From contig NZ_VRUA01000001.1 in NCBI RefSeq assembly GCF_008017535.1, positions 1 to 64,000 on the forward strand: a stretch of 64,000 bases of DNA, written 5' to 3'. This DNA is from Ottowia flava. GTDB lineage: Bacteria > Pseudomonadota > Gammaproteobacteria > Burkholderiales > Burkholderiaceae_C. The translations under genes and the position numbers were made by a program. This document shows positions 8,417 to 47,404 of the stretch, piece by piece (positions within the stretch are counted from its first letter, which is position 1; each line of letters begins with the position of its first letter). The notes beneath the pieces are model-generated. The model made no database searches. It was not told the DNA's origin and worked only from the letters and a program-made list of their open reading frames with translations.

Positions 8417-9227
8417 GCAGCGATTTTATCGACGCGGCAACGGCGTCCAGCGTGGGTCGCGACGCCGTCACGCGACCGAAACCGGCCGCGTGCGCGGCCT
8501 CGGCGATGCGCGGGTGCGTTGCGATTGCGCGCGCCCCGGCCCAGTCCTGCGCCGGCAGCGCCTCGCGCAGGTTGGCGATGGCTTCCGAGCTGCTGAACAA
8601 CCACACGCTGCCGTCGTGCGCGGCGGCCTTAGCGCGCGCGGTCCACGGCCCATCGCCTGGAGGCGCCGTGCGGCGGTAGGCGGCCACCTCTTCCACGGCC
8701 GCGCCCACGGCGCGCAGCTGCGTGGCCAGCCAGTCGCGCCCCGTCGGCCGGCCTTCGGCATCCCCGCCGCGCACGATCAGCACGCGCAGCCCGGGGCGCA
8801 TCTGGCCTGCGACTTGCGCCCAAAGTGATTCGGAGTCGAACTGCGGTGCGTCGGGCGCCGGCTCGTCGATCCGGTCGGGCGGCCAGCCGGCTTCGACCAG
8901 CGCCGCCGTGGTGCCTGGGCCGGGCGACCAAGCTCTTGTTTCAATAGCTGCTTGCGCAGGTGGTTGTAGGGCCGGCGCCGCATTTTCTTCAAAAAAACCG
9001 CGCACGGCGTTGGGGCTGACGAACATCACTACGGCGACTTCCGCCAGCGCGGCTCGGGCCGCGGTCAGCGCCGGCGAGTCCCGCAAGGGCACGATGTCGA
9101 TCAGCGGCAAGGCTTCGGCCGCGATGCCCTGCGCTGCCAGTGCCCGGGCCCAGCGGTCGGCCTCGGGCGCGGGGCGCGTGACCAGCACGCGCGGGGCGCC
9201 GGCCGCGGGCGGCTGGGTAGGGCTCAA
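8403..9227 (-). CDS. hemD: Uroporphyrinogen-III synthase
   Basis: Cyclises hydroxymethylbilane to uroporphyrinogen III with inversion of ring D. 274 residues with the two-lobe HemD fold: RVLVTRP at the N-terminus, [15 protein letters not shown] near 103, LIVRGG and SSSEAI in the second lobe. The start is a TTG that overlaps the hemC stop (TTGA). Residues about 77-97 (including [10 protein letters not shown]) are encoded by a copy of the dispersed element inserted in frame just before the conserved GPGT turn. This is the loop where family members vary, so the protein is probably still active. Confidence 0.92.
8938..8997 (+). repeat. Dispersed ~60-bp element, copy 4 (inside hemD)
   Basis: TTCAATAGCTGCTTGCGC, then TGTAGGGCCGG and a tail ATTTTCTTCAAAAAAAC. 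It lies antisense to hemD and leaves the hemD frame open. Confidence 0.85.
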
Positions 9228-10144: not shown

Positions 10145-10294
10145 AGCGAAACGGCTCGGTTCATCAATTGGCGAAGCTCGCAATGGTACCCGCCGACATG
10201 TGCGGCCCGCCTTGCGACAGCGCAGGAAGTGGGCAGCCAGTGGGCGCAGCACGCCAGCGCCGCGGTGCCGGCCGGAACGCGGCCGGGCAGCGCC

Positions 10295-11041
10295 CTACTC
10301 GCCCAGCGATTCGCGCAACGCGGCCACCTGGCGGCGCGAGACCATCAGCACCTCGTCGATGCCGGCCAGGCGCACGGCCCAGCCGTCGCCCTCGACCGGG
10401 TCGTGCTGGCGCACCAGGGCGCGGATGGCGCCGCGGGCGACCAGCGCGTTGCGGTGGATGCGCACGAAGCGCGGCGGCAAGCGCTCGGCCAATTGGGCCA
10501 GGCTGTCGTCCAGCACATAGGTCGCAGCTGCCGTGCGCACGGTGATGTACTTGAGCTCCGCCTTGAAATAGAGCACCTCGCTCACCGGCACCCGCAGGGT
10601 GCGGCCCCGCTCGTGGATGACCAGCCATTGTTCTTCAGACAAATCGGGCTCTGGCCCTGCATGGACCTGCGCAAGCCGCTCCACTTTTTGAAGCGCCGCC
10701 TGCAGGCGCTCGCGCCGCACCGGCTTGGTGAGGTAGTCCACCGCGTCGATCTCGAAGGCCTTGACCGCGTGTTCGGCGTGGGCGGTGACGAAGACCACCG
10801 CCGGCGGCTGCGGCAGCCGCGCCAGCGTTTCAGCCAGCGTCATGCCATCGGTGCCTGGCATGTGGATGTCGAGCAGCACCAGGTCAAAGTGCGCCCGGCC
10901 CACCAGGGCCAAGGCCTGGGCGGCGCCGTCGGCCTCGCCCCCCACGGCGGCGGCGGGCGAATGGCAATCGCCCAGCAGCGTGCGCAGGCGCGCGCGCGCC
11001 AGAGGCTCGTCGTCGACGATCAACACGTTCAGGGCGGTCAT
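10295..11041 (-). CDS. algR: LytTR-family response regulator (AlgR-like)
   Basis: 248 residues. Receiver domain (1-120) with phospho-acceptor D58 in LVLLDIHMPG and the conserved lysine in YLTKPV. A LytTR DNA-binding domain follows (about 140-245; VRIHRNALVARGAI). The start MTALNVLIVDDEP matches the family; a longer open frame to 11311 is non-homologous. The order argH / algZ / algR / hemC / hemD is the same as around algR in Pseudomonas, which supports the name. There AlgR controls alginate, type IV pili and virulence; targets here are unknown. Confidence 0.88.
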   Translation of the reverse strand: MTALNVLIVDDEPLARARLRTLLGDCHSPAAAVGGEADGAAQALALVGRAHFDLVLLDIHMPGTDGMTLAETLARLPQPPAVVFVTAHAEHAVKAFEIDAVDYLTKPVRRERLQAALQKVERLAQVHAGPEPDLSEEQWLVIHERGRTLRVPVSEVLYFKAELKYITVRTAAATYVLDDSLAQLAERLPPRFVRIHRNALVARGAIRALVRQHDPVEGDGWAVRLAGIDEVLMVSRRQVAALRESLGE

Positions 11042-11171
11042 GGGGCGATCGTGGCGTTCACCGGGCCGCGCGTTACGGGGCAACATGCGCCCGAGTCTGC
11101 CCCAGCGGCAGCGGCCAGGCGCCTTGCACGGCCGTGGGCAGGTGCACTTCGCAAAGGGAGCGTGACCGGCT

Positions 11172-12230: not shown

Positions 12231-12348
12231 GGGTCCCGGCAGTGGCGCCTCAGTGTAGGCCGTGCACCTGCGCGTTGGTCCACCCAGGCGCGCCGCCCGT
12301 CGACTCGCCGTGCGGCTTGCCCGGCCTTTTATCCAGATCCCTCCACGC
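12231..12348. promoter_or_regulatory. Divergent intergenic region algZ / argH
   Basis: 118 bases between the two divergent start codons. It must carry both promoters, but no convincing boxes were picked out by eye. Confidence 0.4.
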
Positions 12349-13785
<1,437 letters not shown>

Positions 13786-13830
13786 TTTGTACTGCGCCAA
13801 AGCAGTAGGTAGTCAGCAGTAGGAAGTTCG

Positions 13831-15176: not shown

Positions 15177-15203
15177 TTAAAACCTTCGACGAATGAGAAA
15201 AAA

Positions 15204-18028: not shown

Positions 18029-18054
18029 CTTTAGTCAATTTGAGGAGTGTGTGC

Positions 18055-21000
18055 TTGATTCGGACATTCATCTCAAGCCGGCGCGCCGCGGGCATGGCCT
18101 TTGTGTTTTTGCTGGGCGCGTCATCGGCTTCTGCTTTCACAACCACGTCCTTAACCCCCCAGGGCGAAGTCGCCTCCGTTCGCCAAGTGGTGGCCAAATT
18201 CAGCGACGACGTGGTCAAGTTCGGCGACCCCAAGGCGCCGGCGCCGTTCAGTGTCAGCTGCGACAATGCCGAGGCGTCCAAGGGGCAGGCGCGATGGAAC
18301 AGTGCGCGCGAATGGGTCTACGACTTTGCGGCCGACCTTCCGCCGGGCGTGCGCTGTCGGGTTGAACCGATTTCTGGGTTCAAATCGGCCTCTGGCGCAG
18401 TACTGACAAGCGCAAGCAGCTATCAATTTAATACTGGCGGTCCATTTGTTCAGCGCGTCACGCCGTCGACCTCGCAACCGATCGAAGAGGACCAGGTGTT
18501 CGTGCTGCGGCTCAACGGCGCCGCCACGACGGAAAGCCTGCAGAACAATCTGTGGTGTCAGGTCGACGGGTTAGGTGAGCAGGTGCCGGTGCGCATGGTG
18601 ACCGGCGAGCCGCGCACCGTGCTGCTCAAGGCCTTGCACATGCAGGTTGAGGCCGAGAAAGCGCCGGGTCGCTATGTGACGCTGTCCTGCAATCGCCGCC
18701 TGACACCCGCCAGCCGCGTGCAACTGGTGTACGGCAGAGGCGTCGCCACGCCCAGCGGCGTCATCAACCACGTGGAAAAGCGCTACGCCTTCAAGGTGCG
18801 TGAGCCCTTCACCGCCAGCATGACGTGCGAGCGCGAGAACGCGCAGGCGGCCTGCATGCCGATCCGTCCCATCACGCTGCGCTTCAGCGCACCGGTGCCT
18901 CGGCGCCTGGCTGGCGAGGTGCGCCTGCGCGCGGACAAGGCGGAGTACCGGCCGGTGTTTGACGAAAGCCTCGACGCCGATGCCCTGGTTGACGAAGTGC
19001 GCTTTCCGGCGCCGCTGCCCGAGCGCACCGCGCTCAAGCTGAGCCTGCCGCCCGACCTCAAGGACGCCAGCGGCCGCGCGCTGGCCAATGCCTCGGGCTT
19101 TCCGATGTCGCTCGCGACCGCCCCGCTGCCGCCGCTGGCCAAGTTCGCCGCCGCCCCGTTCGGCGTGGTCGAGCGCTTTGCCGAAGGCAAGAACAGCACG
19201 CCGCTGATGCCTGTGACGCTGCGCTATGTCGAGCCCGCACTGGCCGCCCAAGGCCTGCAGATCGGTCGCGTGCAACCGCAGAGCGACGCCGAGATCATTG
19301 CCTGGTTCACGCGGGTGCAGCGTTTTGACCAGTTCATGGTGCCGCGCAAGGTCGCGGCGGCCGAAGTGCGCCAGATGCTTCCCAAACCGGTCAGCGAGCC
19401 AACAGAGGACTACATCGAGGCGCGCAGCGTGTCGCTGCTGCAGGGCGCGCCGGATGTCCAGCGCCTTGCGCTGCCGCCTGCACCGGGTGGCAGCGAGCGG
19501 CCGTTTGAGGTGGTGGGCATCCCGCTCACGCCGGGCTTTCATGTGGTGGAGATTGCCTCGCAGCGCCTGGGCAGCTCGCTCTTGGATCCAAAGTATGGCG
19601 CCCAGCGCACGATGTATGTGCGCAGCTCTGCCCTGGTCACCAATTTGGGCGTGCATTTCAAGCTGGGGCGCGAGAACGCGCTGGCCTGGGTCACCACGCT
19701 GGACACCGGCAAGCCGGTGGCCGGCGCGGCGGTGCGCGTGTCTACCTGCGCCGGCAAGGAAGTGGCCACCGCCACCACCGACGCCAAGGGCATTGCCCGC
19801 TTCAAGGGGATTGCGGCCCAGGCGCCGCAATGCGGCCAGGACGGCGACTACGTCGGCGACTTCCAGCAGGCGTACTTCGTCAGCGCACGGGCCGACAACG
19901 CCGGTGCGCAGGACATGGCCTTCACCTGGTCGTCGTGGCAGAGCGGCATCGAGCCCTGGCGCTTCAATGTGCCCACCAACCGCGACGACCTGCCTAACCT
20001 GCGCGCCCACACGGTGTTCGACCGCAGCCTGCTGCGCGCCGGCGAAACGGTGTCGATGAAACACGTGCTGCGCACCGAAACCAGCGCCGGCTTCGGCCTG
20101 CCCAAGGCCAGCCCAGCCACGCTGGTCATCACCCACGTCGGCAGCGGACAGGAATTCACCCAGCCGCTTGCCTGGCGCGCCACCGCCAGCGGCGGGCGCA
20201 GCGCCGAAAGCACGATGGCCATCCCGCCTGCGGCCAAGCTCGGGGTCTACCAAGTCTCGCTGCGCACGCCCGCGCCCGCGCAGGGCGAAGCCGGCAACGA
20301 CATGCCGCAGGAGATCGCCACCGGCCAATTCCGCGTCGAGGAATTCCGCCTGCCGGTGCTTCAGGGCAGCGTTGGGCCACAGTCGAAGGAGCCGCTCGTA
20401 TCCGCCAGCAGCGTACCGACGCAGGTGCAGGTCAGCTATGTGTCGGGCGGGCCAGCCGGCGCGCTGCCGGTGCGCGTGTCGGCACTGACGCGCAACAAGA
20501 GCGTGAACTTCAAAGACTACGACGAATTCAGCTTTGAGCCGCCCCGACCTGCCGATACGCCCCAGGGCGGCGATGGCGAAGAAGAAAGCACCGCCCAGGA
20601 AGACCAGCAGGTGGTGGCCGACAAGCTGCCGCTCACGCTCGACCGCAATGGCCAGGGCCAGTTGACCATTCAGGGCCTCAAGCCCTCGCCACGCCCGCGC
20701 GATCTGTTGATCGAGGCCACGTTTGCGGACCCGAATGGCGAGATACAGACCCTGCGCGGCACGCGCACGCTGTGGCCGGCGTCGGTCGTCCCGGGCATCA
20801 AGGCCGAACGCTGGGCCTCGACCGAGCAGGCGGCCAAGCTGCACGCCGTCGCGCTCGACCTGCAGGGCAAGCCGATCGCCGGCGTCCCGCTGGACGTCAA
20901 GGCCGTGGCCCGCACCACCACCACCAGCCGCAAGCGCATGGTCGGCGGCTTCTACACCTACGACAACCGCACCGAAACCAAGGACCTGGGCACCGTCTGC

Positions 21001-24127: not shown

Positions 24128-24190
24128 TAAAAATTCCAGGCGTTTCATGCCCTCAGCCCTACAGCCACCTGCGCAAGCAGCTCTTCTTTT
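24128..24190 (-). repeat. Dispersed ~60-bp element, copy 6 (intergenic)
   Basis: On the minus strand: AAAGAAGAGCTGCTTGCGC, then GGCTGTAGGGCTGAGGGC and TGGAATTTTTAC. It lies in the gap between the converging A2M and GAF genes, with no terminator hairpin recognised there. Confidence 0.75.
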
Positions 24191-24920: not shown

Positions 24921-25123
24921 GATGGATGCAGTCTGGGGTATGCGGTTGGCAACCCCCTATAGGCGCAATGGTGACTTTCGTGTGCGATTATTCCTTACGT
25001 TTTTTTACAGGGCCAGCCCCTTCGCAATGGCCCCACGGCCGTGAAGCATTCCATTGCTCGTGGTGGGGACAACTACATAGGGGTGTATTCACCCAATTGC
25101 ATGTGCGCAATGACATTCATGCA

Positions 25124-27412
25124 GTGAAGGGTGCGCGCCCAGCCGCTTCTACGCGCGCGCGCAAATTGGTCGCAGCGGCACTGCTGGGCTGGCTGCTGTC
25201 CGGTATGGCGGGTGCCCAAACCTTCGACGCCCTGCGCGCCGAACACCGCCCGTCCGACACGCAAATCCTCGACCGCCGCGGCGAGCCCCTGCAGCGCCTG
25301 CGCACCGACACCCGCGTGCGCCGAGGCGACTGGGTGCCGTTGGCGCGCATATCGCCCGCGCTGCGCCAGGCGCTGGTGCTGTCGGAAGACAAGCGCTTTT
25401 ACGAACATGCTGGCGTGGACTGGCGCGCCGTCAGCGCCGCCGCGTGGGCCAACCTGTGGCACACCCGCACGCGCGGTGCGTCCACGCTGACGATGCAGCT
25501 GGCTGGCCTGCTGGACGACGATTTGCGCCTGGGCACGGGCGGGCGGTCGATCCGCCAGAAGATCGGCCAGGCCGTGATGGCCACGCGGCTGGAGACGCAG
25601 TGGCGCAAAGACGAGATCCTGGAGGCCTACCTCAACCTCGTGCCCTTCCGCGGCGAGCTGGTCGGCATCGACGCGCTGTCGCGCACCCTGTTCGCCAAGG
25701 CGCCACACGGCCTGCAAGACCACGAAGCCGCCATCGCCGCCGCCCTGGTGCGCGCCCCCAATGCCCACCCGGCCCTGGTGGCCGAACGCGCCTGCGGCGT
25801 GCTGAAGGACATGCGCGGCCCGCAGGCCCAGGTCGACTGCGTGGCGCTGGACATGCAGACCGAGATGGCCCTGTCGCGCCGCGCTTTTGCGCCCAGCGAC
25901 GGCGTGGCGCCCCACGCCGCGCGCCGCGTGCTGGCCGCCTGGCGCGCCGCCCACGCGGGCGAGCCCCTGCCCGCCAGCCTGCGCAGCACGCTGGACGCGC
26001 GCGTGCAGCGCCTGGCCCTGCAAACGCTGACGCAGCACGTCAAAGAGCTACACGGCCGCAACGTCGAAGACGGCGCCGTCGTCGTGCTGGACAACGCCAG
26101 CGGCGACGTGCTGGCCTGGGTCGGCTCCACCGGCGCTTTGAGTGCAGCTGCCGAGGTCGACGGCGTGCTGGCCCCGCGCCAGCCCGCCAGCACGCTCAAG
26201 CCCTTTCTGTACGCGCAGGCGATTGCCGAGCGGCGGCTGACCGCCGCATCGCTCATCGACGATTCCCCCGCCGCGCTGCAAACCGGCAGCGGCCTGTACA
26301 TCCCGCAGAACTACGACCGGCGCTTCAAAGGCTGGGTGTCGGCGCGCACCGCACTGGCGTCGTCGCTGAACGTGCCGGCCGTGCGCACCCTGGTCATGGT
26401 GTCGCCCGACGCGTTTGCACACCAGCTGCGCGCCCTGGGCATCGGCCTGCGCGAAGGCGGCGACTACTACGGCTACAGCCTGGCGCTGGGCAGCGCTGAA
26501 ATGCCGCTGCTGCAGCTCACCAACGCCTACCGCGCGCTGGCCAACGACGGGCGCTTCAGCCTCACGGCGCTGCTGCCGGGTGGCCCGGCGCCGCAGTTCA
26601 AACAGGTGCTGGATGCGGCCGCCAGCTTCATCGTCAGCGACATCCTGGCCGACACCAACGCCCGCGCGCCCACCTTCGGCTCCGACTCGCTGCTGGCCAC
26701 GCGCTTTTGGACCGCCGTCAAGACCGGCACCAGCAAGGACATGCGCGACAACTGGGCCGTGGGCTACAGCCAGCGCTACACCGTCGGCGTGTGGGTCGGC
26801 AACGCCAGCGGCGCCGCCATGTGGGACGTCAGCGGCACCAGCGGCGCCGCGCCCGTCTGGGCCGCCCTGATGCGCGCCCTGCACGGCCCCGGCGCCGCGC
26901 CATCGCGCGCCCCCACCCCGCCCGCTGGCGTGGTTGCGCAGCGCGTCAGCTTTGGCAATGGGCTGGAGGCGGCGCGCAGCGAATGGTTCATCCCCGGCAC
27001 GCAGCAGGCGCTATTTGCTATCGAATCAGAAGCTGGCCGCGCAGATGGCTCTAGGGCCAGTGGCCCAAAAGGCTCAAAAAATTCAATTGGGAACAGCGCC
27101 AGCGACGACGCCATCGCCCCGCGCATCACCGCCCCGCAAGACGGCACCACCCTCGCGCTCGACCCCGACATCCCCCCCGCGCGCCAACGCCTGACCCTGA
27201 GCGCCGAAGCCGGCAGCGCCCCCCCGGCCCAGCTGCGCTGGTGGATCGGCGAACGCGAAATCGGCCGCGGAGAACGCGCCCAATGGCTCCCCTGGCCCGG
27301 TCGCCACACCGTGCAGCTGCGCGACGCGCAAGGGCGTGTGCACGATGAAAGGCGGGTGGAGGTCAGGGGCGCCACCGTCAAAGCGCCAGACGCCCGCCGC
27401 ACACCGCGCTGA
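25124..27412 (+). CDS. pbpC: Penicillin-binding protein 1C (bifunctional transglycosylase/transpeptidase)
   Basis: About 762 residues. Single N-terminal hydrophobic segment (about 15-31), GT51 transglycosylase with E88 in SEDKRFYEHAGVD, GASTLTMQLAG and RQKIGQAVMA. The transpeptidase domain has the serine in PASTLKPF, SSLN and KTGTS, and a C-terminal BiPBP_C domain follows. The start is uncertain: GTG 25124 gives a compact signal/anchor; GTG 25103 and an ATG at 24926 are also in frame, and no good ribosome-binding site marks any. Pairing with a macroglobulin gene is a known conserved arrangement. A dispersed-element copy codes residues about 631-653 in the linker before BiPBP_C. Confidence 0.9.
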   Translation: MKGARPAASTRARKLVAAALLGWLLSGMAGAQTFDALRAEHRPSDTQILDRRGEPLQRLRTDTRVRRGDWVPLARISPALRQALVLSEDKRFYEHAGVDWRAVSAAAWANLWHTRTRGASTLTMQLAGLLDDDLRLGTGGRSIRQKIGQAVMATRLETQWRKDEILEAYLNLVPFRGELVGIDALSRTLFAKAPHGLQDHEAAIAAALVRAPNAHPALVAERACGVLKDMRGPQAQVDCVALDMQTEMALSRRAFAPSDGVAPHAARRVLAAWRAAHAGEPLPASLRSTLDARVQRLALQTLTQHVKELHGRNVEDGAVVVLDNASGDVLAWVGSTGALSAAAEVDGVLAPRQPASTLKPFLYAQAIAERRLTAASLIDDSPAALQTGSGLYIPQNYDRRFKGWVSARTALASSLNVPAVRTLVMVSPDAFAHQLRALGIGLREGGDYYGYSLALGSAEMPLLQLTNAYRALANDGRFSLTALLPGGPAPQFKQVLDAAASFIVSDILADTNARAPTFGSDSLLATRFWTAVKTGTSKDMRDNWAVGYSQRYTVGVWVGNASGAAMWDVSGTSGAAPVWAALMRALHGPGAAPSRAPTPPAGVVAQRVSFGNGLEAARSEWFIPGTQQALFAIESEAGRADGSRASGPKGSKNSIGNSASDDAIAPRITAPQDGTTLALDPDIPPARQRLTLSAEAGSAPPAQLRWWIGEREIGRGERAQWLPWPGRHTVQLRDAQGRVHDERRVEVRGATVKAPDARRTPR
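27018..27082 (+). repeat. Dispersed ~60-bp element, copy 7 (inside pbpC)
   Basis: TATCGAATCAGAAGCTGGCC, GCGCAGATGGCTCTAGGGCC and the tail GGCTCAAAAAATTC. Sense orientation to pbpC; it encodes the peptide GRADGSRASGP. Confidence 0.8.
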
Positions 27413-29011: not shown

Positions 29012-29372
29012 TTGATGGGCGATTCGGTCGGGTCAACGCACCCCCGCCATCGGGTCAACCTGAGCGGGGGTGGGTCGCGCACCCGGGCGACGGATACGCC
29101 CCCGTGATTCAGGTGCTTTTCTAGTTTCTTGGTTCGCCCCCGGCCGCAGCCACCCCGCGCCGGCCACACGCGCACCCTGCGCTGTCTGTTCATCCGCGAT
29201 GCCAGGTCAATTGGCACCCAACCAAGGGTTTTTCCCAGGCATGGCGGTCACGTCAATGCCAACTCAAAGATAGACAAGACCGTCCACCAAAAGTTGGAAT
29301 AGGGGTGGGTAACGTATGTATACAAGCCAGCCCCGCCCCCGGGGATTCGCTGCTCACCCTTGGCGCCACACC
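28960..29372. other. Non-coding gap between gor and the IPTL-CTERM gene
   Basis: 413 bases without a credible gene. It holds element copy 8, a 9-bp inverted repeat CACCCCCGC / GCGGGGGTG (29039-29047 and 29064-29072) without a T-run, and a short direct repeat CGGGTCAAC. The last 110 bases are less GC-rich and should contain the promoter of the downstream gene, but no boxes are convincing. Confidence 0.6.
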
Positions 29373-31663: not shown

Positions 31664-31720
31664 GATTGGGTAGCTGCCTGCGCTGATGGGTGTAGGGCTG
31701 GCGGGCGAAATCACCTAAAA
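31664..31720 (+). repeat. Dispersed ~60-bp element, copy 9
   Basis: ATTGGGTAGCTGCCTGCGC, GGTGTAGGGCTGGCGGGC, tail TCACCTAAAAC. First of two copies in the gap between the IPTL-CTERM gene and dedA. Confidence 0.8.
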
Positions 31721-31776
31721 CTGCACGGTGCCAGGCAGCGCGGCCAATCGCGCATGCGCGGCGCCCGAATCACTTG

Positions 31777-39226: not shown

Positions 39227-42200
39227 TTACTTGCGCATCAGCACTTTCAGTGCGTTTTGCAGGCGGCGGGCGGTGGCTTCATCGTGCGGTGTGGCCAGGA
39301 CTTTGCCGGTGTCGGCGGCCCAGGTGTCGGCGGGCGACGGGTCGTTGCGGCGGGTCAGCAGTTGCAGCTGCAGCGCGCGGCGGGCGTCCAGGTGCTCGGC
39401 GGGCGTGGGCACGTCGGCGGCCATTTCCAGGCGCAGCAGGGCTTCGGGCGCGCTGCCTTGCGGCGCGGCCTGCACGGCCTGCACCCAGGCGGTGCGGGTG
39501 CTGCCGCTGACGCCCTTGCCCAGCTCTTGCGCGCTGGGCAGTTTGTCGGCCTGGCGGTCGGCCCAGGCGCCCATGAGTTGCGTCAGCGTTTCGCCGTGCG
39601 CTTGCGCGGCCAGTTTGCGCAACTGGGCCTGGGCGTGTTCGACGGCGTCGCGCTGGGCGCGGAAGGCGGCGTCGCCCAGGCGCGGGCCGCGGTCTTCGCG
39701 CGGCCCGCGGTCGCCGAAGCGGCCACCACCGTCGCGGCGGTCACCAAAACGGCCGCCTCGGTCGCCACCAGGGCCACCGCGGTTGTCGCGCCCACCGGGG
39801 CCACCGCGGCCGTCGCGGCGGTCACCGAACTTGCCGCCACGGCCCGCGGGGGCGGGCTCGGCGCGCTTGGCGCCAGGGCGGTCGTCGCCGCGCATGGCGA
39901 TGACGGGTTTGGGTGGCGCCTTGGGCGGTGCGGCGGGGGCCGGCGTTTCAGCCGCGGGCGCGTCGGTGGCTTCGCCTTCGGCGGCCGGGGCGGCATCCGC
40001 TGCGTTTTCTGTAGCTGGTTGCGCAGATTCCGCGCCGGTTTCAGGCGCTTTTTCTTCCGAGGCGGCGGGTGCTGGTGCGGCAGCAGCGGGTGCGGCGGCC
40101 GGTGCCGGCTGGGCGCGCGTGGCGGCTTCCAGCGCAGCCATGGCGGCGCGGATGCGGGCGGCATCGCCACTGGCGTTGGCTTCTTCCAGCGCCTTGGCGG
40201 CGTCGAGCACGGCGCGGTCGTGCGCGCTCATGGCGGCGGCGTGCTTTTCGCGGTCAACGGTCTTGCGGTTGAAGGCGTCGTCGATCGGCTTGCGGAAGGC
40301 GTCCCACAGCTTTTGTTCGTGCTTGCGGTCCAGCGGCACGGCCTGCGCTTCGGCCTGCCAGCGCTGCTGCAGCGACTTGACGGCGTCGATGCGCAGCTGC
40401 GGCGCGGCGCCCAGCTCTTCGGCCTCGGCGATTAGGCCCTGGCGGCGCGCGGTGCTGTGCTTTTGCGCGGTTTCCAGCGGCGCGGCGGCGGCGTGGATGG
40501 CTTCCTTCCACTTGCCCTGCAGTTCGCCAAAAGCCTTTTCGCTCAGGTGGCCGGCGTTGCGCCAACGGTCGGAGAACTGGTGGATCTGGCGGTTGAAGGC
40601 CTTCCAGTCGGTGCCCTCGCCCGCACCGGCGTGCGCGGCGCCGAAGGCCTTGACCTCGTCGATCAGTGCCATGCGCTGCGACTTGTGTTCGGCCGCTTCG
40701 GCGCGGACCTTGGTCAGCCATTCGTCGACGTGCTTGTGCGCGGCGTTGATGGCGCGGTCAAAACGCTTCCACAGGCCGTGGTTGGGCGCGCCGCCCTGGT
40801 CGGCGGCCTTCCATTCGTCGCGCAGCTTGCGGATGGTGTCCTGCAGCTTGCGACCGCCCATGGCGGGCACGAGTTCGTAGCCGGGCTCCAGCGCTTCGGC
40901 GGCGGGCGCGGCCTTGGGCGCGGCGGCGGCCGCGTCTTCGGCGGCGCCGGCCTGTTCGGTGGCCGTGGTGGCGGCGTTGGCTTCGGCGTTCTGCGCGTTG
41001 GCGCTGGCGTCGGCGGGCGCGTTCACTTGATGGGCGGCGGCCTGCGCGTCTTCCATCGCACCGGCTTCTTCGGTGGCGCGGGTGGCGGCGTTGGCCTCGG
41101 CGCTGGCGGCGGCCGAATCGGCGGCCGGTTCAGCGGGTTTTCCGGCGTCAGCGCTAGAACCGTCTGCGCCGGCAGCTGCGTTTTCTGTAGCAGCGGCGGC
41201 TTCGGCTTGGCCGGCGGCTTCGGTCGCCGTGGTGGCGGTGTTGGCCTCGGCGCTGGCAGCGGCGGACGTGGCTTGCGCGTCCTGCGCGGCGCCGGCTTGC
41301 TCGGTCGCGGTGGTGGCTTCGTTGGCCTGGGCGCTGGCGTCGGCGGCGCCCTTGATCTTGCGCTTGACCATCAGCGCCTCGGCCTTGGCGACCAGCTGTT
41401 CGCGCACCTTGTCGGCGCTCCAGCGCTGCCAGCCTTCCAGCTCGCCCGCGGACACCAGCGTGGCGTGCACGCGCGCTTCGAGCGCGTCGTCGATCAGGCG
41501 GCCATGCGCCTTGAGCGACTGGCGCAGCGCCTGCGTGGCGCTGTGCATGTTCTTGGTGTGGCCGGCGGTGACGGCCTGCTCCAGCAGCTTGACGCCGGCT
41601 TCAACGGCCTTTTGCGCGGCGTTGCGCTGCTCGGGGTCGACGCGCGGCTTGGCGGCGGGTTTGGCGGCGTCTTCGGTGCCAGCGGCGGCGACGGGCGCTT
41701 CACCGCGCGCGGCGCGCAGCTCGTCGGCCCACACCGGTACGGGCGGCAGCGGCGCGGCCTTGTCGGTAGCCGCCGCGGTGGCCTGCGCCAGCGCGGCGAC
41801 GAAGGCGTCGCGCACGGCCGTCAGTTGGGCCTGCGCGGCTTCGAGTTGCGGCGGGTAGCGCACGTCCACGCTCAACCACTGCGGGTCGGCCAGCAGCAGG
41901 CGCGCGTGGCTGCGCCACTGTTCGACGTCGGTGGCGAGACCGGCTTGCTGCGCCTGCGCGTCGGCCAGCGGCTTGGTGGACAGCAGCTCGATGCGCTGCG
42001 CCAGCATGACGGCGGCTTCGCGCTGCACCATCACGCGCTGCTGCAGGTCTTCGACCTTCTTGACGCGGTCGACCAGCTGCGCGCGCAGGCTGGCCAGCGG
42101 CTCGCGCGACAGCGGCGCGCCGGCCTTGGCGGCGTCGCGCTGCCAGGCCAGGGAGTCGGCGATGTTCAGGCGCGCGGCCTGCAGCAGGGCCTGGGCCTTG

Positions 42201-42502
42201 GCTTCCCATTCGGCGGCGACCGCCTCCTGGCCCTTGGCGCGGCGCAGCTCTTCGAGCTTTTCACGCAAGGCCTTGGCCGCGCCTTTGTCCTTGGACGACA
42301 GTTCCTTGTAGACCTCTTGCATCTGGTCGGGCGTGGGGTCGCTGGCCAGCCAATCGCGTACGCGCTGGGCGCGTTCGCCCGAAGTGGCGGCGGAAAACAC
42401 GCCGCCCGTCATGGCGTCGAGCGGGTGCGCTTCAACGGCCTTGGGCGCGGGTGCGGCGGCCTCGGGCTGGGGGTCTTTGGGTTCGCGAGAGAAGGGAAAC
42501 AT
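39227..42502 (-). CDS. DUF349 domain-containing protein with repeat linker and RGG-like tail region
   Basis: 1091 residues. Helical DUF349-type coiled-coil domains lie in the N-terminal 370 residues and again around 540-740 (KLRDEWKAADQGG, WKAFNRQIHQFSDRWRNAG). They are separated by a low-complexity linker (about 385-530) with four degenerate copies of a unit like ANAATTATEQAGAAEDAQA. A second disordered part (about 780-950) ends in RGG-type repeats (FGDRRDGRGG, GGRFGDRGPR), which suggests nucleic-acid contact. Two dispersed-element copies code parts of the disordered regions. DUF349 proteins have no settled function. Alone, on the minus strand, downstream of the DUF748 gene. Confidence 0.8.
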   Translation of the reverse strand: MFPFSREPKDPQPEAAAPAPKAVEAHPLDAMTGGVFSAATSGERAQRVRDWLASDPTPDQMQEVYKELSSKDKGAAKALREKLEELRRAKGQEAVAAEWEAKAQALLQAARLNIADSLAWQRDAAKAGAPLSREPLASLRAQLVDRVKKVEDLQQRVMVQREAAVMLAQRIELLSTKPLADAQAQQAGLATDVEQWRSHARLLLADPQWLSVDVRYPPQLEAAQAQLTAVRDAFVAALAQATAAATDKAAPLPPVPVWADELRAARGEAPVAAAGTEDAAKPAAKPRVDPEQRNAAQKAVEAGVKLLEQAVTAGHTKNMHSATQALRQSLKAHGRLIDDALEARVHATLVSAGELEGWQRWSADKVREQLVAKAEALMVKRKIKGAADASAQANEATTATEQAGAAQDAQATSAAASAEANTATTATEAAGQAEAAAATENAAAGADGSSADAGKPAEPAADSAAASAEANAATRATEEAGAMEDAQAAAHQVNAPADASANAQNAEANAATTATEQAGAAEDAAAAAPKAAPAAEALEPGYELVPAMGGRKLQDTIRKLRDEWKAADQGGAPNHGLWKRFDRAINAAHKHVDEWLTKVRAEAAEHKSQRMALIDEVKAFGAAHAGAGEGTDWKAFNRQIHQFSDRWRNAGHLSEKAFGELQGKWKEAIHAAAAPLETAQKHSTARRQGLIAEAEELGAAPQLRIDAVKSLQQRWQAEAQAVPLDRKHEQKLWDAFRKPIDDAFNRKTVDREKHAAAMSAHDRAVLDAAKALEEANASGDAARIRAAMAALEAATRAQPAPAAAPAAAAPAPAASEEKAPETGAESAQPATENAADAAPAAEGEATDAPAAETPAPAAPPKAPPKPVIAMRGDDRPGAKRAEPAPAGRGGKFGDRRDGRGGPGGRDNRGGPGGDRGGRFGDRRDGGGRFGDRGPREDRGPRLGDAAFRAQRDAVEHAQAQLRKLAAQAHGETLTQLMGAWADRQADKLPSAQELGKGVSGSTRTAWVQAVQAAPQGSAPEALLRLEMAADVPTPAEHLDARRALQLQLLTRRNDPSPADTWAADTGKVLATPHDEATARRLQNALKVLMRK
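40004..40060 (+). repeat. Dispersed ~60-bp element, copy 13 (inside DUF349 gene)
   Basis: GTTTTCTGTAGCTGGTTGCGC, diverged middle, GGCGCTTTTTCTTCCG. It is antisense to the gene and encodes ESAQPATE in the same frame as the hemD copy. Confidence 0.65.
41128..41188 (-). repeat. Dispersed element, copy 14 (degenerate, inside DUF349 gene)
   Basis: On the minus strand: GCAGCTGCCGGCGCAGACGG, TTCTAGCGCTGACGCCGG. It encodes AGADGSSADAG in the same frame as the pbpC and DUF748 copies. Degenerate, so moderate confidence. Confidence 0.5.
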
Positions 42503-42730: not shown

Positions 42731-45700
42731 TCAGCGGGCGCTCAGGTTCAGTTCGGCCCGCGGCGACCAGGCGCTGCGGGTCGCGCCCTCCGCCCCGCTG
42801 GCCGCGCTGGCGGGCGCGTCGGCGGCCGTGGCCTGCTTCGCCGGCTGCGCCCCGCTGCGCGCGGCGCCCAGGAACACGCGGTCGGTCGGCAGCTTGCGCG
42901 CGGCCAGGTAGTCCTTGACGGCGACGCCGCGCTGCGTGGCCAGTTGGCGCATGGCGTCTTCGCCGACCTCGATCTGGGCCATCAGCAGCGCCTCCATCTC
43001 GGCCACCGGGATGTCCTTTTGCAGGCCGATGGCGTTGCGCGGCTTGCCCGGCAGGTCGGCGCGGCGGTACAGGCGGCGCAGCAGCTGCGGGTATTCGGCG
43101 TCGGTCACCGTCACCGCGGCCGCGGCGCCCGAGGCGGCGCCCGCTGGCGCACTCGCGCCCGTCGCGGGGGCCGCAGCCGCTACAGATTCCGAAGCTGCCT
43201 GCGCTGGTGTGGCGCTGGCTGCACCCTGATTCGCCCGTTTTTCCGCGGCGACCAGGGTCTTCAGCCGTTCGCGCTTGTAGCCTTCGCGCTCGGCCGCCAG
43301 GCTGGAGGTGCCGACCACCGTCAGCTTCAGCGTCGGCCGGTCGGTCAGCGCCTTGGCGACCTTGTCGAGCTGCTCGCGCGCCTTGGCGTTCAGCTGCGCA
43401 CTGCCGGGCGCGAAGGCCACGTTCGACATGTCGTCGCCCGGCCCGCCGCCGAGCGCGCGAGCCAGCAGCGTGAACGGCGCGGTGATGGCCTTGCCGATGA
43501 TGTTGATGATGGCCTTGACGATGATCGGCCCGACCGAGAACTGCGGGTCGTTCAGCGAGCCGCTGATCGGCAAGTCCAGATCGATCACGCCCTTGCTGTC
43601 GGCCAGCAGCGCCGTGGCCAGCTTGACCGGCAGGCTGGCGGGCGCCCCGGCGACGGCTTCGCCGAATTCCAGCTGGTTCAGCACCAGCTTGTTGGTGGCC
43701 GTGAGGCGCCCGTCGGGCTCGACCTTGTAGGCCACGTCCATGCTGAGCTTGCCGCGCTCGATGCCGTGGCCGGCGTACTTGACCGAATACGGCGACAGCG
43801 GCGGCAGCTCCAGATCGCTGACCTTGGCCTGGATGTCCAGCGCCAGCGGCTTGGCCAGCGGGTTGAGCTTGCCGCGGATGTCCAGGCCGGCGGTGCCTTC
43901 AGCGCGGCCGGTCAGCTCCAGATCGGCCATCTGCGGTGCGCCACCCGGAGGCACCGAACTGAAGGCGCTGAGCGAGCCGTTCAGCTCGGTCAAATCGGCC
44001 GAATAGTTGGGCCGGATGAAGCGGTCGGAGAAGAACACCTTGCCGTTGCTCAGCTTCACCGGGCCAAAGCGGATGACCGGCGCGTTCGGATCAACCTGTT
44101 GAACGATTGGGGCTGCGACCGTCGCTGGACCTGCGGCGGCAGCTACAGAACCTGTAGCGTCACCGCTGTTCTCGCCGGCCGCGGGCTGGCCGACGGCGGC
44201 ACTGCGCGTGGCCACTGGCGCGGCAGCGGCGGTGACCGTGGCGTCGCCGTCCTTGGACTTGACCAGATCCTGCAGGTTGATGCGGCCATTGGGGTGGATC
44301 AGCAGGCGGGCGTAGAAGTCGGACAGCTGCGTGTCCTTCACGTCGACCTGAAGCGGCTTGCCGGGATCCAGCTGCACGTCCACGCCGCCCAGGCGCAGTT
44401 GCTTCCAGCTGAGCAGTTCTTCGCCCAGGCCGCCGGCGCGGTCGGCCCCGGCGCCGGGTGCCAGCGGGGCTTGCGATCCGCCCGAGGCGCGCGCCACGGC
44501 GCTTGCCTGATCACCGCGGGCCGCCGCCGGGCGCGCCGGACCGGTGGCCGTGGTGGTGCGGCTGCCGCCCAGGTTGCGGTGCGTGGTCGATGCCGGCGCG
44601 CCGGGCGCGGGCGGTGCGTCGGCACCGCCGCTGGCGGCGCTGCCGGGCCGGCTGTGGGTGCGCAGCTCTTCCACCAGCGCGTCGCCAGTGACGCGGGCGC
44701 GCGGGCCCTGCGCGGTCTGCGTGAAGTCGACCTTGCCCTTGAAGCTGGTGTCGGCGCGCAGGATGTCGATGTTCAGCGCCTCGCCAAAGTACGGCTCGAA
44801 GGCGTGCACCGGCAGGCGCACCGCGTCGACCTGCCCCTGCGCGCTGAGCGCGGGCAGCACACCGACCTGGCCGCGCCAGGACAGGCGCCCGGGGTCGGAC
44901 CGGCCCGCACCCAGGCGGGTGACCAGGGCCACCTGCATCGGCTGGGCGGCGTTCAGGTCGATCTGCTTGGCCGTCAGGTGCAGTTGGGTCAGCTCGGCGC
45001 GCACCGGCTCGGCCATGGCCAGGTCCTGCCAGCCGACGTTGCCGTCGTCCACCGCGAGTTCGGCGACCTGCACCTTCCAGGGAAAGTCGGTCTTGGGGCC
45101 CTTGCTGGCCGCGGCGGGCGACTTGGCAGCGGGCTTGCCCTTGTCCGCGGCCGGCTCGCCTGCGGGTTGGCGCAACCAGCGCTCGAACATCAGGCGCTGC
45201 TCGGCGTCGCGCGCCACGTCGATCTGCGGCTTTTGCAGCGCGACCTTGCCGACGGTGACGGCGCGGCTGCGCAGGTCGACTAGCACCTGGTCCAGCGCCA
45301 ATTCGTCCACGCTGCCCAGCACGCCCGGAGCGCGGGCACGGCTGCGGGCACCGCGCGCCGGCGCGGCGGGCGCCGTGGCGCCGCTCTCGTCGGTCAGCAG
45401 CAGGTGGCTGAGCACCAGGCGATCGGCGGCGACCTTGAGCTCAGGCGGCAGGTCGACGGCCTTGGGCGGCGCCCATTGCAGGCCGACGTGGGCGTCGAGG
45501 TTGCCGGTCAGCTGCGGCACCAGGTGCGGCGCCAGGTAGGGCGCGGCCAGCGCCAGCGGCAGCGCGGCGATGCGGGCGTTGACCTCGGCGCCTTGCAGGC
45601 TGGCCGTACCCTGGAATTCCAGCGAAGGCACGGCGCCCAGGGCCGAGGCGTGCACGGTGGACACCGGCGCCGAGGCCGCGCCTGCGGGCGCTGCGGCGGT

Positions 45701-47404
45701 CTGGAGATGTGGTGGGGTGTCGGCTTTGGCGCCAGCCTTGGGTTGGGCGCCGGCCTTCGCGTCGTCGGTCTTGGCAACCGCCTTGCCGCCGGCTTTGGCG
45801 GCCTTCGCGTCCGCCTTGGCGGCGGCTTTGGTGGCCGGCTTGGCGGTCGCTGGCGCGGGCAAGGCCTTGGTCAGCCCTTCGGTGCCGACCAGCGCGGCCG
45901 AGCCGTTGAAGGCCACGGCCTGTGCCATCGGCCAGGCGATGCGCTGGGCGGCCAGCTCGACCTCGTTCAGGCGCACGGTGGCGGCGGCGCTGGTGTCGCT
46001 CAGCGTGGTGTCGTCGGTCACATCGACCGTGCCGCCGTGCACGGCCAGTTCGTCGACCTGCACCTTCCAGACCGGGGCCGCCGATTTGGCGCCGGTGGCC
46101 GCAGCCGATGCGCCGGACGCGCGCCGGGCGGCCTCGGACGCGGGCGATGCGGGGGTCAGCACAGAAGCAGACGCCGTTGCGGAGGCGGGCGCGGCCGGCG
46201 GCGCTGCGCTGGCGGCGCTGACCGGCGATTTGGCATCCAATGTGCCTTCAGCCCTACTGCCATCTGCGCGGGCAGCTACTGTTTGAGGAGTTTTTGCTGC
46301 CGACTCCGACACCAGCAGGTTGATGCGCCCGCCCTTGTCGCGGCGCACGGCGACGTGCGGGTTGGTCAAATCGACCTTGGCCAGGTGGATCTTGCCTTCC
46401 AGCGGCCGCACGTCGGCCAGTTGCACCTTCAGGCCGTCGAAGGCCACGGCGTCGGCGCCCTGCCCGTCCTTGGCCTTCAGACCGCTGACCTCCAGCCCGC
46501 CCAGGACGCGCAAGCTGGGCTGCGGCGTCTGCTCGAAGCCCAGGCGCAGGTCGGCATCCAGCGTGGCCGCTTCCAGCTTGATCGGCAGGCCGGCCGGCAC
46601 GTAGCCCAGGTAGGGCGCCAGATCGAGCTTGCTGAACCGGAAGGCGGCGTCGGTCTGGCGCGAATCGGTGAAGGGCAGCGCCGAGGCGCTGGAGTCGAAC
46701 GCGCTGCCGTTGGCGACAAAGGCCAGCTTGGGCTGCACCTTGATCTCGCGCTGCGACGGCAGGTTGCTGATGAAAGGCACGTTCAGATGCAGATCGCGCA
46801 CCTGGTGCTGGCGCCCGACGGTCTGGTCGTCAAAGTCGATCTGGCCGCCCTGCACCTGGATGTTGTAGAGGGCAAAGCGCGCCGGATCGCCCGGCTCGGC
46901 CGGTTGTGGGCGCGCGGCGAACTTGGCCAGGATGTCGTCGATGTCGTAGTGGCCGTTGCCCAGGTGCTTGAGGCGCAGGACCGGCGCATCGACCTGGATC
47001 GCGTCCATCACCGGCGCCAGGCGGACCAGCGATTCGATGTCGGCGTCCACGTAAGCGCGCTGGATCTGCACCTGCGGCGGGGCGCCCGCAGCGCCGGCCA
47101 CAGCCAGGTTGCGCAGCGTGAGTTCTAGCGTCCAGGGCTTGAAGTCGACCTCGCCAATGGTCACGGCGCGGCCCAGCTGTTCGCTGGCGATCTTCTGCGC
47201 CTGCCATTTCAAAAGCGGCGGCACGGCCAGCCAGCCGACGGCCCACAGGCCGAGCACACCGGTCACCGTCCAGACCGCGCGGCGCGCCCAGCGGTTGGCG
47301 GGAAGGTGGCGCTTCAACCGCCCGCCTACGGGGCGTTGGGGCGGCGCAGTTGGCGGTGCGGCGGAGGGGGTGGACTCGGGGGATTCGCTGGCGCCAGACG
47401 TCAT
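42731..47404 (-). CDS. Large DUF748/AsmA-like envelope protein with OmpA-like C-terminal part
   Basis: 1557 residues. Cytoplasmic basic N-terminus, one membrane helix (about 42-66), then a very long periplasmic part with AsmA-like repeats (EVDFKPWTLELTLRNLAV near 90; ELNGSLSAFSS and GRAEGTAGLDIRGKLNPLAK near 1140-1180; ISGSLNDPQFSVGP near 1280). An OmpA-like segment follows (NVAFAPGSAQLNAKAREQLD near 1325). AsmA-like bridge proteins move lipids across the periplasm; DUF748 members may do the same, which is inference. Several alanine/proline-rich inserts interrupt the fold, and three are built from dispersed-element copies. ATG at 47404. Confidence 0.85.
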   Translation of the reverse strand: MTSGASESPESTPSAAPPTAPPQRPVGGRLKRHLPANRWARRAVWTVTGVLGLWAVGWLAVPPLLKWQAQKIASEQLGRAVTIGEVDFKPWTLELTLRNLAVAGAAGAPPQVQIQRAYVDADIESLVRLAPVMDAIQVDAPVLRLKHLGNGHYDIDDILAKFAARPQPAEPGDPARFALYNIQVQGGQIDFDDQTVGRQHQVRDLHLNVPFISNLPSQREIKVQPKLAFVANGSAFDSSASALPFTDSRQTDAAFRFSKLDLAPYLGYVPAGLPIKLEAATLDADLRLGFEQTPQPSLRVLGGLEVSGLKAKDGQGADAVAFDGLKVQLADVRPLEGKIHLAKVDLTNPHVAVRRDKGGRINLLVSESAAKTPQTVAARADGSRAEGTLDAKSPVSAASAAPPAAPASATASASVLTPASPASEAARRASGASAAATGAKSAAPVWKVQVDELAVHGGTVDVTDDTTLSDTSAAATVRLNEVELAAQRIAWPMAQAVAFNGSAALVGTEGLTKALPAPATAKPATKAAAKADAKAAKAGGKAVAKTDDAKAGAQPKAGAKADTPPHLQTAAAPAGAASAPVSTVHASALGAVPSLEFQGTASLQGAEVNARIAALPLALAAPYLAPHLVPQLTGNLDAHVGLQWAPPKAVDLPPELKVAADRLVLSHLLLTDESGATAPAAPARGARSRARAPGVLGSVDELALDQVLVDLRSRAVTVGKVALQKPQIDVARDAEQRLMFERWLRQPAGEPAADKGKPAAKSPAAASKGPKTDFPWKVQVAELAVDDGNVGWQDLAMAEPVRAELTQLHLTAKQIDLNAAQPMQVALVTRLGAGRSDPGRLSWRGQVGVLPALSAQGQVDAVRLPVHAFEPYFGEALNIDILRADTSFKGKVDFTQTAQGPRARVTGDALVEELRTHSRPGSAASGGADAPPAPGAPASTTHRNLGGSRTTTATGPARPAAARGDQASAVARASGGSQAPLAPGAGADRAGGLGEELLSWKQLRLGGVDVQLDPGKPLQVDVKDTQLSDFYARLLIHPNGRINLQDLVKSKDGDATVTAAAAPVATRSAAVGQPAAGENSGDATGSVAAAAGPATVAAPIVQQVDPNAPVIRFGPVKLSNGKVFFSDRFIRPNYSADLTELNGSLSAFSSVPPGGAPQMADLELTGRAEGTAGLDIRGKLNPLAKPLALDIQAKVSDLELPPLSPYSVKYAGHGIERGKLSMDVAYKVEPDGRLTATNKLVLNQLEFGEAVAGAPASLPVKLATALLADSKGVIDLDLPISGSLNDPQFSVGPIIVKAIINIIGKAITAPFTLLARALGGGPGDDMSNVAFAPGSAQLNAKAREQLDKVAKALTDRPTLKLTVVGTSSLAAEREGYKRERLKTLVAAEKRANQGAASATPAQAASESVAAAAPATGASAPAGAASGAAAAVTVTDAEYPQLLRRLYRRADLPGKPRNAIGLQKDIPVAEMEALLMAQIEVGEDAMRQLATQRGVAVKDYLAARKLPTDRVFLGAARSGAQPAKQATAADAPASAASGAEGATRSAWSPRAELNLSAR
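43182..43245 (+). repeat. Dispersed ~60-bp element, copy 15 (inside DUF748 gene)
   Basis: AGATTCCGAAGCTGCCTGCG, GGCGCTGGCTGC, tail GATTCGCCCGTTTTTC. Antisense to the gene; it encodes TPAQAASE in the same frame as the hemD copy. Confidence 0.65.
44098..44152 (-). repeat. Dispersed element, copy 16 (degenerate, inside DUF748 gene)
   Basis: On the minus strand: TTCTGTAGCTGCCGCCGC, then a diverged middle and ATCGTTCAACAGG. Degenerate; the left half and the end fit best. Confidence 0.4.
46230..46290 (-). repeat. Dispersed ~60-bp element, copy 17 (inside DUF748 gene)
   Basis: On the minus strand: CAAACAGTAGCTGCCCGCGC, AGATGGCAGTAGGGCTG, tail GGCACATTGGATG. Sense to the gene; it encodes ARADGSRAEGT. 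Confidence 0.8.

What the first reader, a model, noticed from the sequence alone, without database searches (positions are those of the whole stretch)
8938..46290. The element is inserted in frame in unrelated proteins and gives them shared peptides
Seen directly: sense-strand insertions encode GRADGSRASGP in PBP1C (27018), ARADGSRAEGT in the DUF748 protein (46230) and AGADGSSADAG in the DUF349 protein (41128), all in the same reading frame. Antisense insertions encode PPAQAAIE in HemD (8938), ESAQPATE in the DUF349 protein (40004) and TPAQAASE in the DUF748 protein (43182), again in one common frame. The A2M gene uses another frame. Non-homologous proteins thus share peptides from one DNA source, the behaviour known for Rickettsia palindromic elements, here with a different sequence and host.
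Basis: partly seen in the sequence, partly recalled or inferred. Interest (0 to 1): 0.75.

Follow-up and report, generated by a model that had tools for sequence, protein, structure and literature searches.

The report
Genome-wide DNA motif with species dialects
A DNA motif of about 68 letters recurs hundreds of times in this bacterium, between genes and in frame inside unrelated genes; it looks less like jumping DNA than like a signal kept in place and re-spelled in each species, perhaps a tag for taking up DNA from its own kind.

Summary
In 864 kb of the host (Ottowia-like, Comamonadaceae) a ~68-bp element has 212 copies (1 in reversed sequence). Of 199 copies >=14 bits, 40 lie inside genes, in one frame per orientation (17 of 20 sense, 18 of 20 antisense), giving unrelated proteins ADGSRA- or ALQPxAQAA-type peptides. 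In sense, stop codons suffice to explain the frame.

The motif sits at the same place in HemD, A2M and PBP1C of other genera. A2M and PurK keep their length where it is absent; HemD, carboxyltransferase, GlmU and PBP1C show net gains of about 5 to 26 residues. Copies show no arm covariation and almost no copy lineages. Genomes differ in consensus: 24 of 33 mapped copies have a congener counterpart, in the same orientation, and six of seven genic pairs follow each genome's dialect.

Best explanation: a motif evolving in place under genome-wide pressure, most like a DNA uptake signal; uptake is untested. Rivals: a chromosomal binding site, or old REP/RPE-like elements.

The parts
8943..8985 (+). 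motif copy in hemD (gene on - strand 8403-9227; motif antisense, peptide ..[11 protein letters not shown])
   Evidence: 40.8 bits; same place in other genera; net +5 aa against genera g2, g6, g8
10641..10680 (-). motif-like copy in the linker of a LytTR response regulator (gene - strand; sense, phase 1)
   Evidence: 30.9 bits; linker 45-48 aa in 28 of 30 sequences; no called G011 copy
18382..18423 (-). motif copy in the A2M gene (17968-24045 +; antisense, phase 0, the exceptional frame)
   Evidence: 18.3 bits; segment 22-24 aa in 30 of 30, exact core in 9 of 30
24149..24182 (-). motif copy between the A2M and PBP1C genes
   Evidence: 32.2 bits; G011 copy in the same gap and orientation
27030..27067 (+). 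motif copy in pbpC / PBP1C (24926-27412 +), linker between transpeptidase and BiPBP_C domains; sense, peptide AGRADGSRASGP
   Evidence: 34.4 bits; domains; exact or one-mismatch core in 7 of 14 relatives; no called G011 copy
40012..40029 (+). weak candidate copy in the DUF349 gene (39227-42502 -), antisense
   Evidence: 14.2 bits; Ala-rich linker; no called G011 copy; not secure
41141..41177 (-). motif copy in the DUF349 gene, sense (AGADGSSADAG)
   Evidence: 26.4 bits; dialect shift against G011
43192..43209 (+). weak candidate copy in the DUF748 gene (42731-47404 -), antisense
   Evidence: 9.6 bits, near the background of the reversed control; not secure
46239..46279 (-). motif copy in the DUF748 gene, sense (ARADGSRAEGT)
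   Evidence: 40.2 bits; DUF748 domain 36-1510; dialect shift against G011
2551..2572 (-). weaker motif copy in the gap before the gene at 2592
   Evidence: 13.7 bits; G011 copy in the same gap and orientation
4370..4412 (+). motif copy outside called genes
   Evidence: 27.0 bits; genes
31670..31711 (+). motif copy outside called genes
   Evidence: 34.2 bits
31784..31822 (+). second motif copy in the same gap
   Evidence: 29.4 bits
36622..36655 (-). motif copy outside called genes
   Evidence: 27.5 bits
38261..38302 (-). motif copy outside called genes
   Evidence: 36.9 bits
50743..50784 (+). motif copy outside called genes
   Evidence: 42.2 bits; G011 copy in the same gap and orientation
52102..52143 (-). 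motif copy outside called genes
   Evidence: 38.1 bits
54860..54901 (+). motif copy that overlaps the 3' end of a short called ORF (54878-55174 -)
   Evidence: 38.2 bits; ORF; G011 copy in the same gap and orientation

Best explanation
The element is a linear DNA signal: a near-invariant core AGCTGNNNGCGC, an 11-base spacer, a second GC half-site and AT-rich tracts on both sides, about 68 bp in all. It is kept at several hundred permissive sites of a Comamonadaceae chromosome. Shown here: it sits at conserved positions and orientations, it is spelled in a genome-specific dialect at those positions including inside genes, it has no paired-arm covariation and almost no copy lineages, at some genes it comes and goes without a length change, and it is patchy within the family. 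Inferred: a sequence-specific factor of each lineage reads it, and copies that fit that factor are favoured at every tolerant site, so sites evolve by point mutation toward the current dialect and decay together when the system is lost. The factor I think most likely is the DNA-uptake machinery of natural transformation: DNA holding the motif is preferentially taken up and recombined, which spreads good spellings by molecular drive. Proteins carry the peptides ADGSRA.. or ALQPxAQAA.. because the signal is tolerated in loops and linkers in the frames that stay open.
For: Abundance: 212 copies >=12 bits in 864 kb against 1 in the reversed sequence; 448 exact ATAGCTGNNNGCGC in the genome against 3 for the backwards pattern. 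Position and orientation: 24 of 33 colinear copies have a G011 counterpart, 26 of 26 pairs in the same orientation. Dialects: consensus differs in own, G011, G014, G023, G032 and G031, and a further one was fitted for G005; matrices from intergenic copies alone assign internal copies to their own genome in 34 of 40 (own), 26 of 28 (G011) and 5 of 6 (G032); of 7 orthologous genic pairs, 6 own copies and 7 G011 copies prefer their own dialect. Core identity of orthologous pairs is 0.649, against 0.578 for random cross-species pairs and 0.66 for copies within a genome. No excess of arm pairing in 212 own and 116 G011 copies. In 199 own copies the mean identity is 0.575 and the maximum 0.844, against maxima of 0.750-0.812 in column shuffles; mutual information beyond 3 bases is 0.0268 against 0.025. 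No length change at A2M and PurK, little at LytTR. Joint state: relatives with <=1 core mismatch in HemD, A2M or PBP1C have higher genome-wide counts (one-sided p 0.0017 for 26 relatives, 0.00039 for 25, 0.02 for 14; not corrected for kinship). Known uptake signals behave so: USS evolve by point mutation and are not inserted elements (PMC7811141, section 8), DUS have dialects (PMC3630211, passages), and intragenic uptake sequences have orientation and location biases (PMC2346458, passages). Acidovorax temperans and Verminephrobacter eiseniae show species-specific transformation or selective uptake; the passages I saw name no sequence (PMC4212676).
Against: No uptake was measured and no receptor was sought. 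At 68 bp the motif is much longer than a DUS. Over the whole element orthologous pairs keep some likeness of their own: 0.611 against 0.507 (random cross) and 0.558/0.548 (within own/G011). G014 internal copies go to their own dialect in only 5 of 12, G032 intergenic copies left out one by one in only 5 of 13, and the own A2M copy does not follow the own dialect. ComEC is found in 52 of 60 genomes, motif-rich and motif-poor, so it does not discriminate. Spacing is no more even than one copy per intergenic gap predicts. Pairwise identity varies more than in column shuffles (sd 0.0666 against at most 0.0569), and G011 holds near-duplicates (maximum 0.891). Sharp ends of the conserved stretch and net length gains in GlmU, PBP1C, HemD and carboxyltransferase fit an inserted unit better. 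G011 and G014 copies were called with models trained on those genomes, so copies off dialect may be missed: 9 of 33 sites have no called counterpart.
Confidence: 0.45

Rival explanations
1. A genome-wide binding site of a chromosomal protein (nucleoid structure, topology, segregation or repair) whose specificity drifts, with direct selection at every site.
For: Motif without covariation, dialects, conserved positions, rarity in divergent gaps (11 copies, 97 gaps >=60 bp, against 52 copies, 84 convergent gaps) and AT tracts on both sides fit equally well. One copy per gap fits too.
Against: Near-absence in many congeners (within the family 17 of 36 genomes have >=100 exact cores and 17 have <=20, some of the latter incomplete assemblies) is odd for a housekeeping site. 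No strong strand bias on the contigs (117 to 95).
Confidence: 0.27
2. An old mobile element of the REP/RAYT, MITE or Rickettsia-palindromic kind, inserted in the family's ancestor, its copies now relics or occasionally moved.
For: Element-like boundaries, 3'-end and intergenic preference as in REPs (PMC3733652 passages), net gains in GlmU, PBP1C, HemD and carboxyltransferase. The own Y1 transposase gene has a copy just downstream and one beyond its upstream neighbour, in opposite orientation; 7 of 718 own genes have copies in opposite orientation within 500 bp of both ends.
Against: No arm covariation, almost no copy lineages, no length difference near +68 bp at the 9 mapped sites without a G011 copy, no length change at A2M and PurK. 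PF01797 is found in 14 of 17 motif-rich and 13 of 17 motif-poor family genomes and is missing from motif-rich G017 (99% complete, 392 exact cores). Relics do not explain a changed dialect at old sites.
Confidence: 0.18
3. A transcription-terminating or RNA-processing element at gene ends.
For: Enriched in convergent gaps.
Against: Tandem gaps hold near-equal numbers in both orientations (47 same, 44 opposite), arms do not covary, 40 of 199 copies are inside genes, no Rfam family reaches its threshold in the window.
Confidence: 0.06
4. Ordinary Ala-rich linkers that resemble each other by chance.
For: The weak hits in DUF349 (40012) and DUF748 (43192) lie in such linkers and score 14.2 and 9.6 bits.
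Against: 212 hits >=12 bits in 864 kb against 1 in reversed sequence, and 154 of 199 copies >=14 bits are intergenic.
Confidence: 0.02

Closest known systems
DNA uptake sequences of Neisseriaceae (DUS) and uptake signal sequences of Pasteurellaceae (USS)
   Same: Hundreds of copies in both orientations, in genes and between them; core shared by species dialects; USS carry AT tracts beside the core; USS evolve by point mutation rather than insertion; intragenic orientation biases (PMC3630211 and PMC2346458: passages; PMC7811141: passages and section 8).
   Different: Length about 68 bp, two GC half-sites, another family, no uptake test, no receptor known.
Spaced motif pairs GCTTAT(N)5AAGCG of Acidovorax ebreus and ATAGCT(N)22CAAAAG of Polaromonas naphthalenivorans (PMC5217627, passages and section 13)
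   Same: The first fits the 11-base spacer between two GCGC half-sites, and a G032 copy printed contains it exactly; the second starts with the left core ATAGCT. 114 and 125 copies, mostly intergenic, 5 and 18 in genes; 4 of 107 intergenic copies of the first are divergent. Both genera are listed as Comamonadaceae in Table 2 of PMC3110155.
   Different: Reported as two separate unexplained motifs; that section describes no link between them, no dialects, no orthologous sites, no peptides. The right half CAAAAG matches none of the dialects I saw. Identity with this element was not tested on those genomes.
Rickettsia palindromic elements
   Same: Unrelated proteins share peptides from one repeated DNA (PMC10969869, passages).
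   Different: RPEs are described there as ~150 bp inserted units of ten families; here no paired arms, no unit-sized insertion at several sites, genome-specific re-spelling.
GTAG/CGTC REPs with RAYT transposases
   Same: Short, abundant, mostly downstream of genes, some inside genes (PMC3733652, passages).
   Different: Arm pairing is not maintained here and presence does not follow PF01797.
Beta-proteobacterial repeat element BRE (PMC3110155, outline, passages and section 14)
   Same: Found in Bordetella and Comamonadaceae, some copies inside coding sequences.

Membership tests
DNA uptake signals (DUS/USS) | Preferential uptake or transformation of DNA holding the motif | not testable with these tools
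   Needs an uptake assay; species-specific transformation or uptake in two Comamonadaceae is in PMC4212676 (passages)
DNA uptake signals (DUS/USS) | Strong over-representation in the genome, both strands | tested here: met
   448 exact cores (241 forward, 207 reverse) against 3 for the backwards pattern
DNA uptake signals (DUS/USS) | Evolves by point mutation, not insertion | tested here: inconclusive
   Met at A2M and PurK, nearly at LytTR; net gains at GlmU, PBP1C, HemD, carboxyltransferase
DNA uptake signals (DUS/USS) | Lineage-specific dialects | tested here: met
   weak for G014 internal copies (5 of 12) and G032 intergenic copies (5 of 13)
DNA uptake signals (DUS/USS) | A cognate receptor (ComP-like pilin) | not tested
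   No receptor search was made; ComEC alone is uninformative
Rickettsia palindromic elements | Palindrome with maintained pairing | tested here: not met
   No excess of arm pairing over expectation in 212 own and 116 G011 copies
Rickettsia palindromic elements | Inserted in frame as a unit | tested here: inconclusive
   Not at A2M and PurK, hardly at LytTR; possible at PBP1C and GlmU
REP/RAYT | RAYT (PF01797) present with the repeat | tested here: not met
   14 of 17 motif-rich and 13 of 17 motif-poor family genomes match at E<=0.001; motif-rich G016, G017 and G020 do not (G016 and G020 86% and 76% complete, G017 99%)
BRE | Sequence match to BRE | not tested
   The text read gives no BRE sequence; its alignment is a figure, which is not held

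The most novel reading that the evidence does not exclude
Comamonadaceae hold a further, independent family of self-recognition DNA uptake signals: a long two-half-site motif whose dialects shift lineage by lineage, rewriting hundreds of orthologous sites and with them short peptide stretches of dozens of unrelated proteins.
Probability: 0.4. Interest if true: 0.88.

Novelty: new variant of a known kind. Interest (0 to 1): 0.7.

Why it matters
If it is an uptake signal, species-specific transformation in this family gets its missing sequence, and shared peptides in unrelated proteins become a by-product of DNA-level drive. Even without that function, a 68-bp motif that keeps its positions while its spelling changes genome-wide is a clear natural case for separating copying, gene conversion and selection, and a warning that shared peptides between non-homologous proteins need not mean inserted selfish DNA.

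Tried and rejected
Hairpin or structured RNA: no Rfam match at the gathering threshold in the window and no covariation in either genome tested. RAYT dependence: PF01797 does not track the motif. The copies near the own Y1 gene looked like a REP-transposon layout, but a neighbouring ORF lies between the gene and the upstream copy, so I do not count it; the same place in more genomes could not be fetched. Even spacing as a mark of uptake signals: striking against a base-wise null but gone against a one-copy-per-gap null. Element-free stretches as mobile islands: of 43 genes called in the two longest (34 and 25 kb) I scanned 10; they include sigma-70, primase, polysaccharide and type II secretion genes and no transposase, so inconclusive. 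Paper search by the motif's letters: none of the 30 papers listed of 156 is on Comamonadaceae by title and start of abstract.

Corrections made while checking: my working note says 25 of 33 colinear copies have a G011 copy; recounted it is 24 of 33 (26 pairs). The A2M test left out genome G027 by oversight; one search repeats it with G027 (p 0.00039 in place of 0.00057).

Rows dropped before counts: three of 30 HemD loci without the anchor; of 18 HemD pieces fetched one was not found and one carries the segment, so 16 enter the length count; the own genome and relatives of other families were left out of the tests; own copies under 14 bits were left out. Core mismatch values were entered by hand, genome counts, and the PF01797 tallies.
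Full report
What is there. The window is from an Ottowia-like member of the Comamonadaceae: the DUF748 protein finds three named Ottowia records at 66, 72 and 76% identity in their best segments. Iterated profile search in the window, then in 864 kb of the same genome (C1 1-464 kb and C12 1-400 kb, about a fifth of it), gave 212 copies at >=12 bits against 1 in the reversed sequence. Base frequencies of the 199 copies >=14 bits show a conserved stretch of about 68 bp with clear ends: an AT-rich left part with GCTAT, a core AGCTGCYTGCGC of which AGCT and GCGC are 97-100% invariant, an 11-base spacer, a second half-site GSGC, GGAGGCC, and two AT-rich tracts about 10 bases apart on the right. No Rfam family reaches its threshold in the window.

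The observation. The claim that unrelated proteins share peptides is right and general: among internal copies >=24 bits, most sense copies carry ADGSRA-like peptides and most antisense copies ALQPxAQAA-like ones; the LytTR copy and one copy in C12 (2398) read in other frames and do not. Pfam hits of 20 host proteins outside the window point, by my naming, to GyrA, GlmU, SelB, a dihydrolipoamide acyltransferase, two ABC-F-like ATPases and several RNA-modification enzymes. By my reading of those tables about half of the 20 copies lie outside a Pfam domain or at its edge and about half inside. Frames: 17 of 20 sense and 18 of 20 antisense internal copies share one phase. In sense this is what stop codons allow; in antisense a preference remains.

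Where copies lie. With a simple codon-usage gene caller (85% coding), 199 copies split into 40 internal, 5 partial, 52 convergent, 91 tandem (47 same and 44 opposite orientation), 11 divergent. Gaps >=60 bp number 84 convergent, 297 tandem and 97 divergent. So copies avoid divergent gaps and coding sequence, have no orientation bias in tandem gaps, and rarely share a gap; spacing adds nothing beyond one copy per gap.

Insertion or not. A2M: 30 of 30 sequences have a 22-24-residue segment at the site, four of them from other families, while 9 of 30 carry the exact core. PurK: same length in 29 of 29 orthologues from other families. LytTR: 45-48 residues between anchors in 28 of 30 and 55-56 in two. 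HemD: exact core at the identical offset in 9 of 26 anchored relatives and one mismatch in 4, exact in genera g3 and g5; against 16 sequences without the segment the net gain is +5 in 8 (g2, g6 and g8 among them), range -2 to +8. Carboxyltransferase: +7 or +8 in 16 of 18, of which only four are above 50% identity and the rest may be paralogues. GlmU: +11 in 5 of 5. PBP1C: +22 to +26 by my count against three outgroups; among congeners the linker varies freely. At the nine mapped sites where G011 has no called copy, no length difference is near +68 bp. The sites therefore do not in general look like one unit inserted and carried; some may be.

Dialects. Models trained on each genome give different consensus sequences. 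33 own copies could be placed between colinear flanks in 400 kb of the congener G011; 24 have a G011 copy there, 26 pairs in all, every pair in the same orientation. Orthologous cores are 0.649 identical, random cross-species pairs 0.578, copies within a genome 0.66. In the spacer the figures are 0.402, 0.323 and 0.556 (own) or 0.414 (G011). Over the whole element they are 0.611, 0.507 and 0.558/0.548, so some likeness of the site's own remains. Matrices trained on intergenic copies only assign internal copies to the own genome in 34 of 40, to G011 in 26 of 28, to G032 in 5 of 6, but to G014 in only 5 of 12; left-out intergenic copies are assigned rightly in 146 of 154, 80 of 85, 15 of 17 (G014) and only 5 of 13 (G032). 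Of seven genic orthologous pairs, six own copies and seven G011 copies prefer their own dialect; the exception is the own A2M copy, which also uses another reading frame. Intergenic co-occurrence alone could partly be chance, since convergent gaps are often occupied; the genic pairs and the orientations are not so explained.

Not a copied family, not a hairpin. Arms show no excess pairing in 212 own or 116 G011 copies. The 199 own copies have mean pairwise identity 0.575 and maximum 0.844, column shuffles maxima of 0.750-0.812; mutual information beyond three bases is 0.0268 against 0.025. Against a perfect matrix: the spread of identities is larger than in shuffles (sd 0.0666 against at most 0.0569), neighbouring bases depend on each other, and G011 holds near-duplicates (maximum 0.891).

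Distribution. Exact ATAGCTGNNNGCGC: own 448, G011 569, G014 610; within the family 17 of 36 genomes have >=100, 17 have <=20 (some incomplete) and two lie between; in 24 genomes of other families 0 to 7. Relatives with the core in HemD, A2M or PBP1C have higher counts (kinship not corrected). PF01797 (14 of 17 rich, 13 of 17 poor) and ComEC do not follow this pattern.

Mechanism. A linear motif that is invariant in its core, re-spelled genome by genome at fixed sites and missing from whole genomes calls for a sequence-reading factor and a pressure at each site. Gene conversion among copies is unlikely at 58% identity and would leave linkage, which is nearly absent. The known class with these habits is the uptake signal of naturally transformable bacteria (PMC7811141, PMC3630211, PMC2346458; passages, and section 8 of the first). 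The family has documented species-specific transformation (PMC4212676, passages). This is an inference by analogy. A chromosomal binding protein would explain nearly as much.

Prior print. PMC5217627 (section 13) lists GCTTAT(N)5AAGCG (114 copies, Acidovorax ebreus) and ATAGCT(N)22CAAAAG (125 copies, Polaromonas naphthalenivorans) as unexplained motifs. The first matches a G032 copy of this element exactly; the second shares only its left half. Among the papers listed (20 of 294; 30 of 156; 15 of 140; 12 of 22; 12 of 869; 6 of 248) I saw, by title, start of abstract and the passages read, none that names an uptake signal in this family; the library holds open-licence papers only.

Noticed in passing
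window 30252-30457 and 30507-30712: Direct 206-nt repeat, 87% identical, inside the ORF with DUF7948 and an IPTL-CTERM motif (29316-31601).
   Followed up: no
window 40887-41360: Ala-rich 90-nt degenerate repeats in the DUF349 gene, which make weak motif hits there hard to judge.
   Followed up: partly
L053 and L061 (G018, G025), HemD region: Extra in-frame stretches with the peptide GSDH beside the motif segment; possibly another repeat.
   Followed up: no
G005 C1 60-160 kb (L208-L212): A strongly diverged dialect: GCGC, 11-base spacer ending CCACTA, then GGAC; 11 hits >=10 bits in 100 kb.
   Followed up: partly
G000 C1 364337-398717 and C12 165812-191215: Longest motif-free stretches (34 and 25 kb); 10 proteins scanned include polysaccharide and type II secretion genes.
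   Followed up: partly
L196 2228-2269, 2891-3685, 3691-3732: The one Y1 transposase match of the genome has a motif copy just downstream and another beyond its upstream neighbour, in opposite orientation.
   Followed up: partly
G004, G007, G012 (congeners): 5 to 13 exact cores in 4.3 to 7.0 Mb, while other congeners have hundreds: perhaps genome-wide loss.
   Followed up: partly
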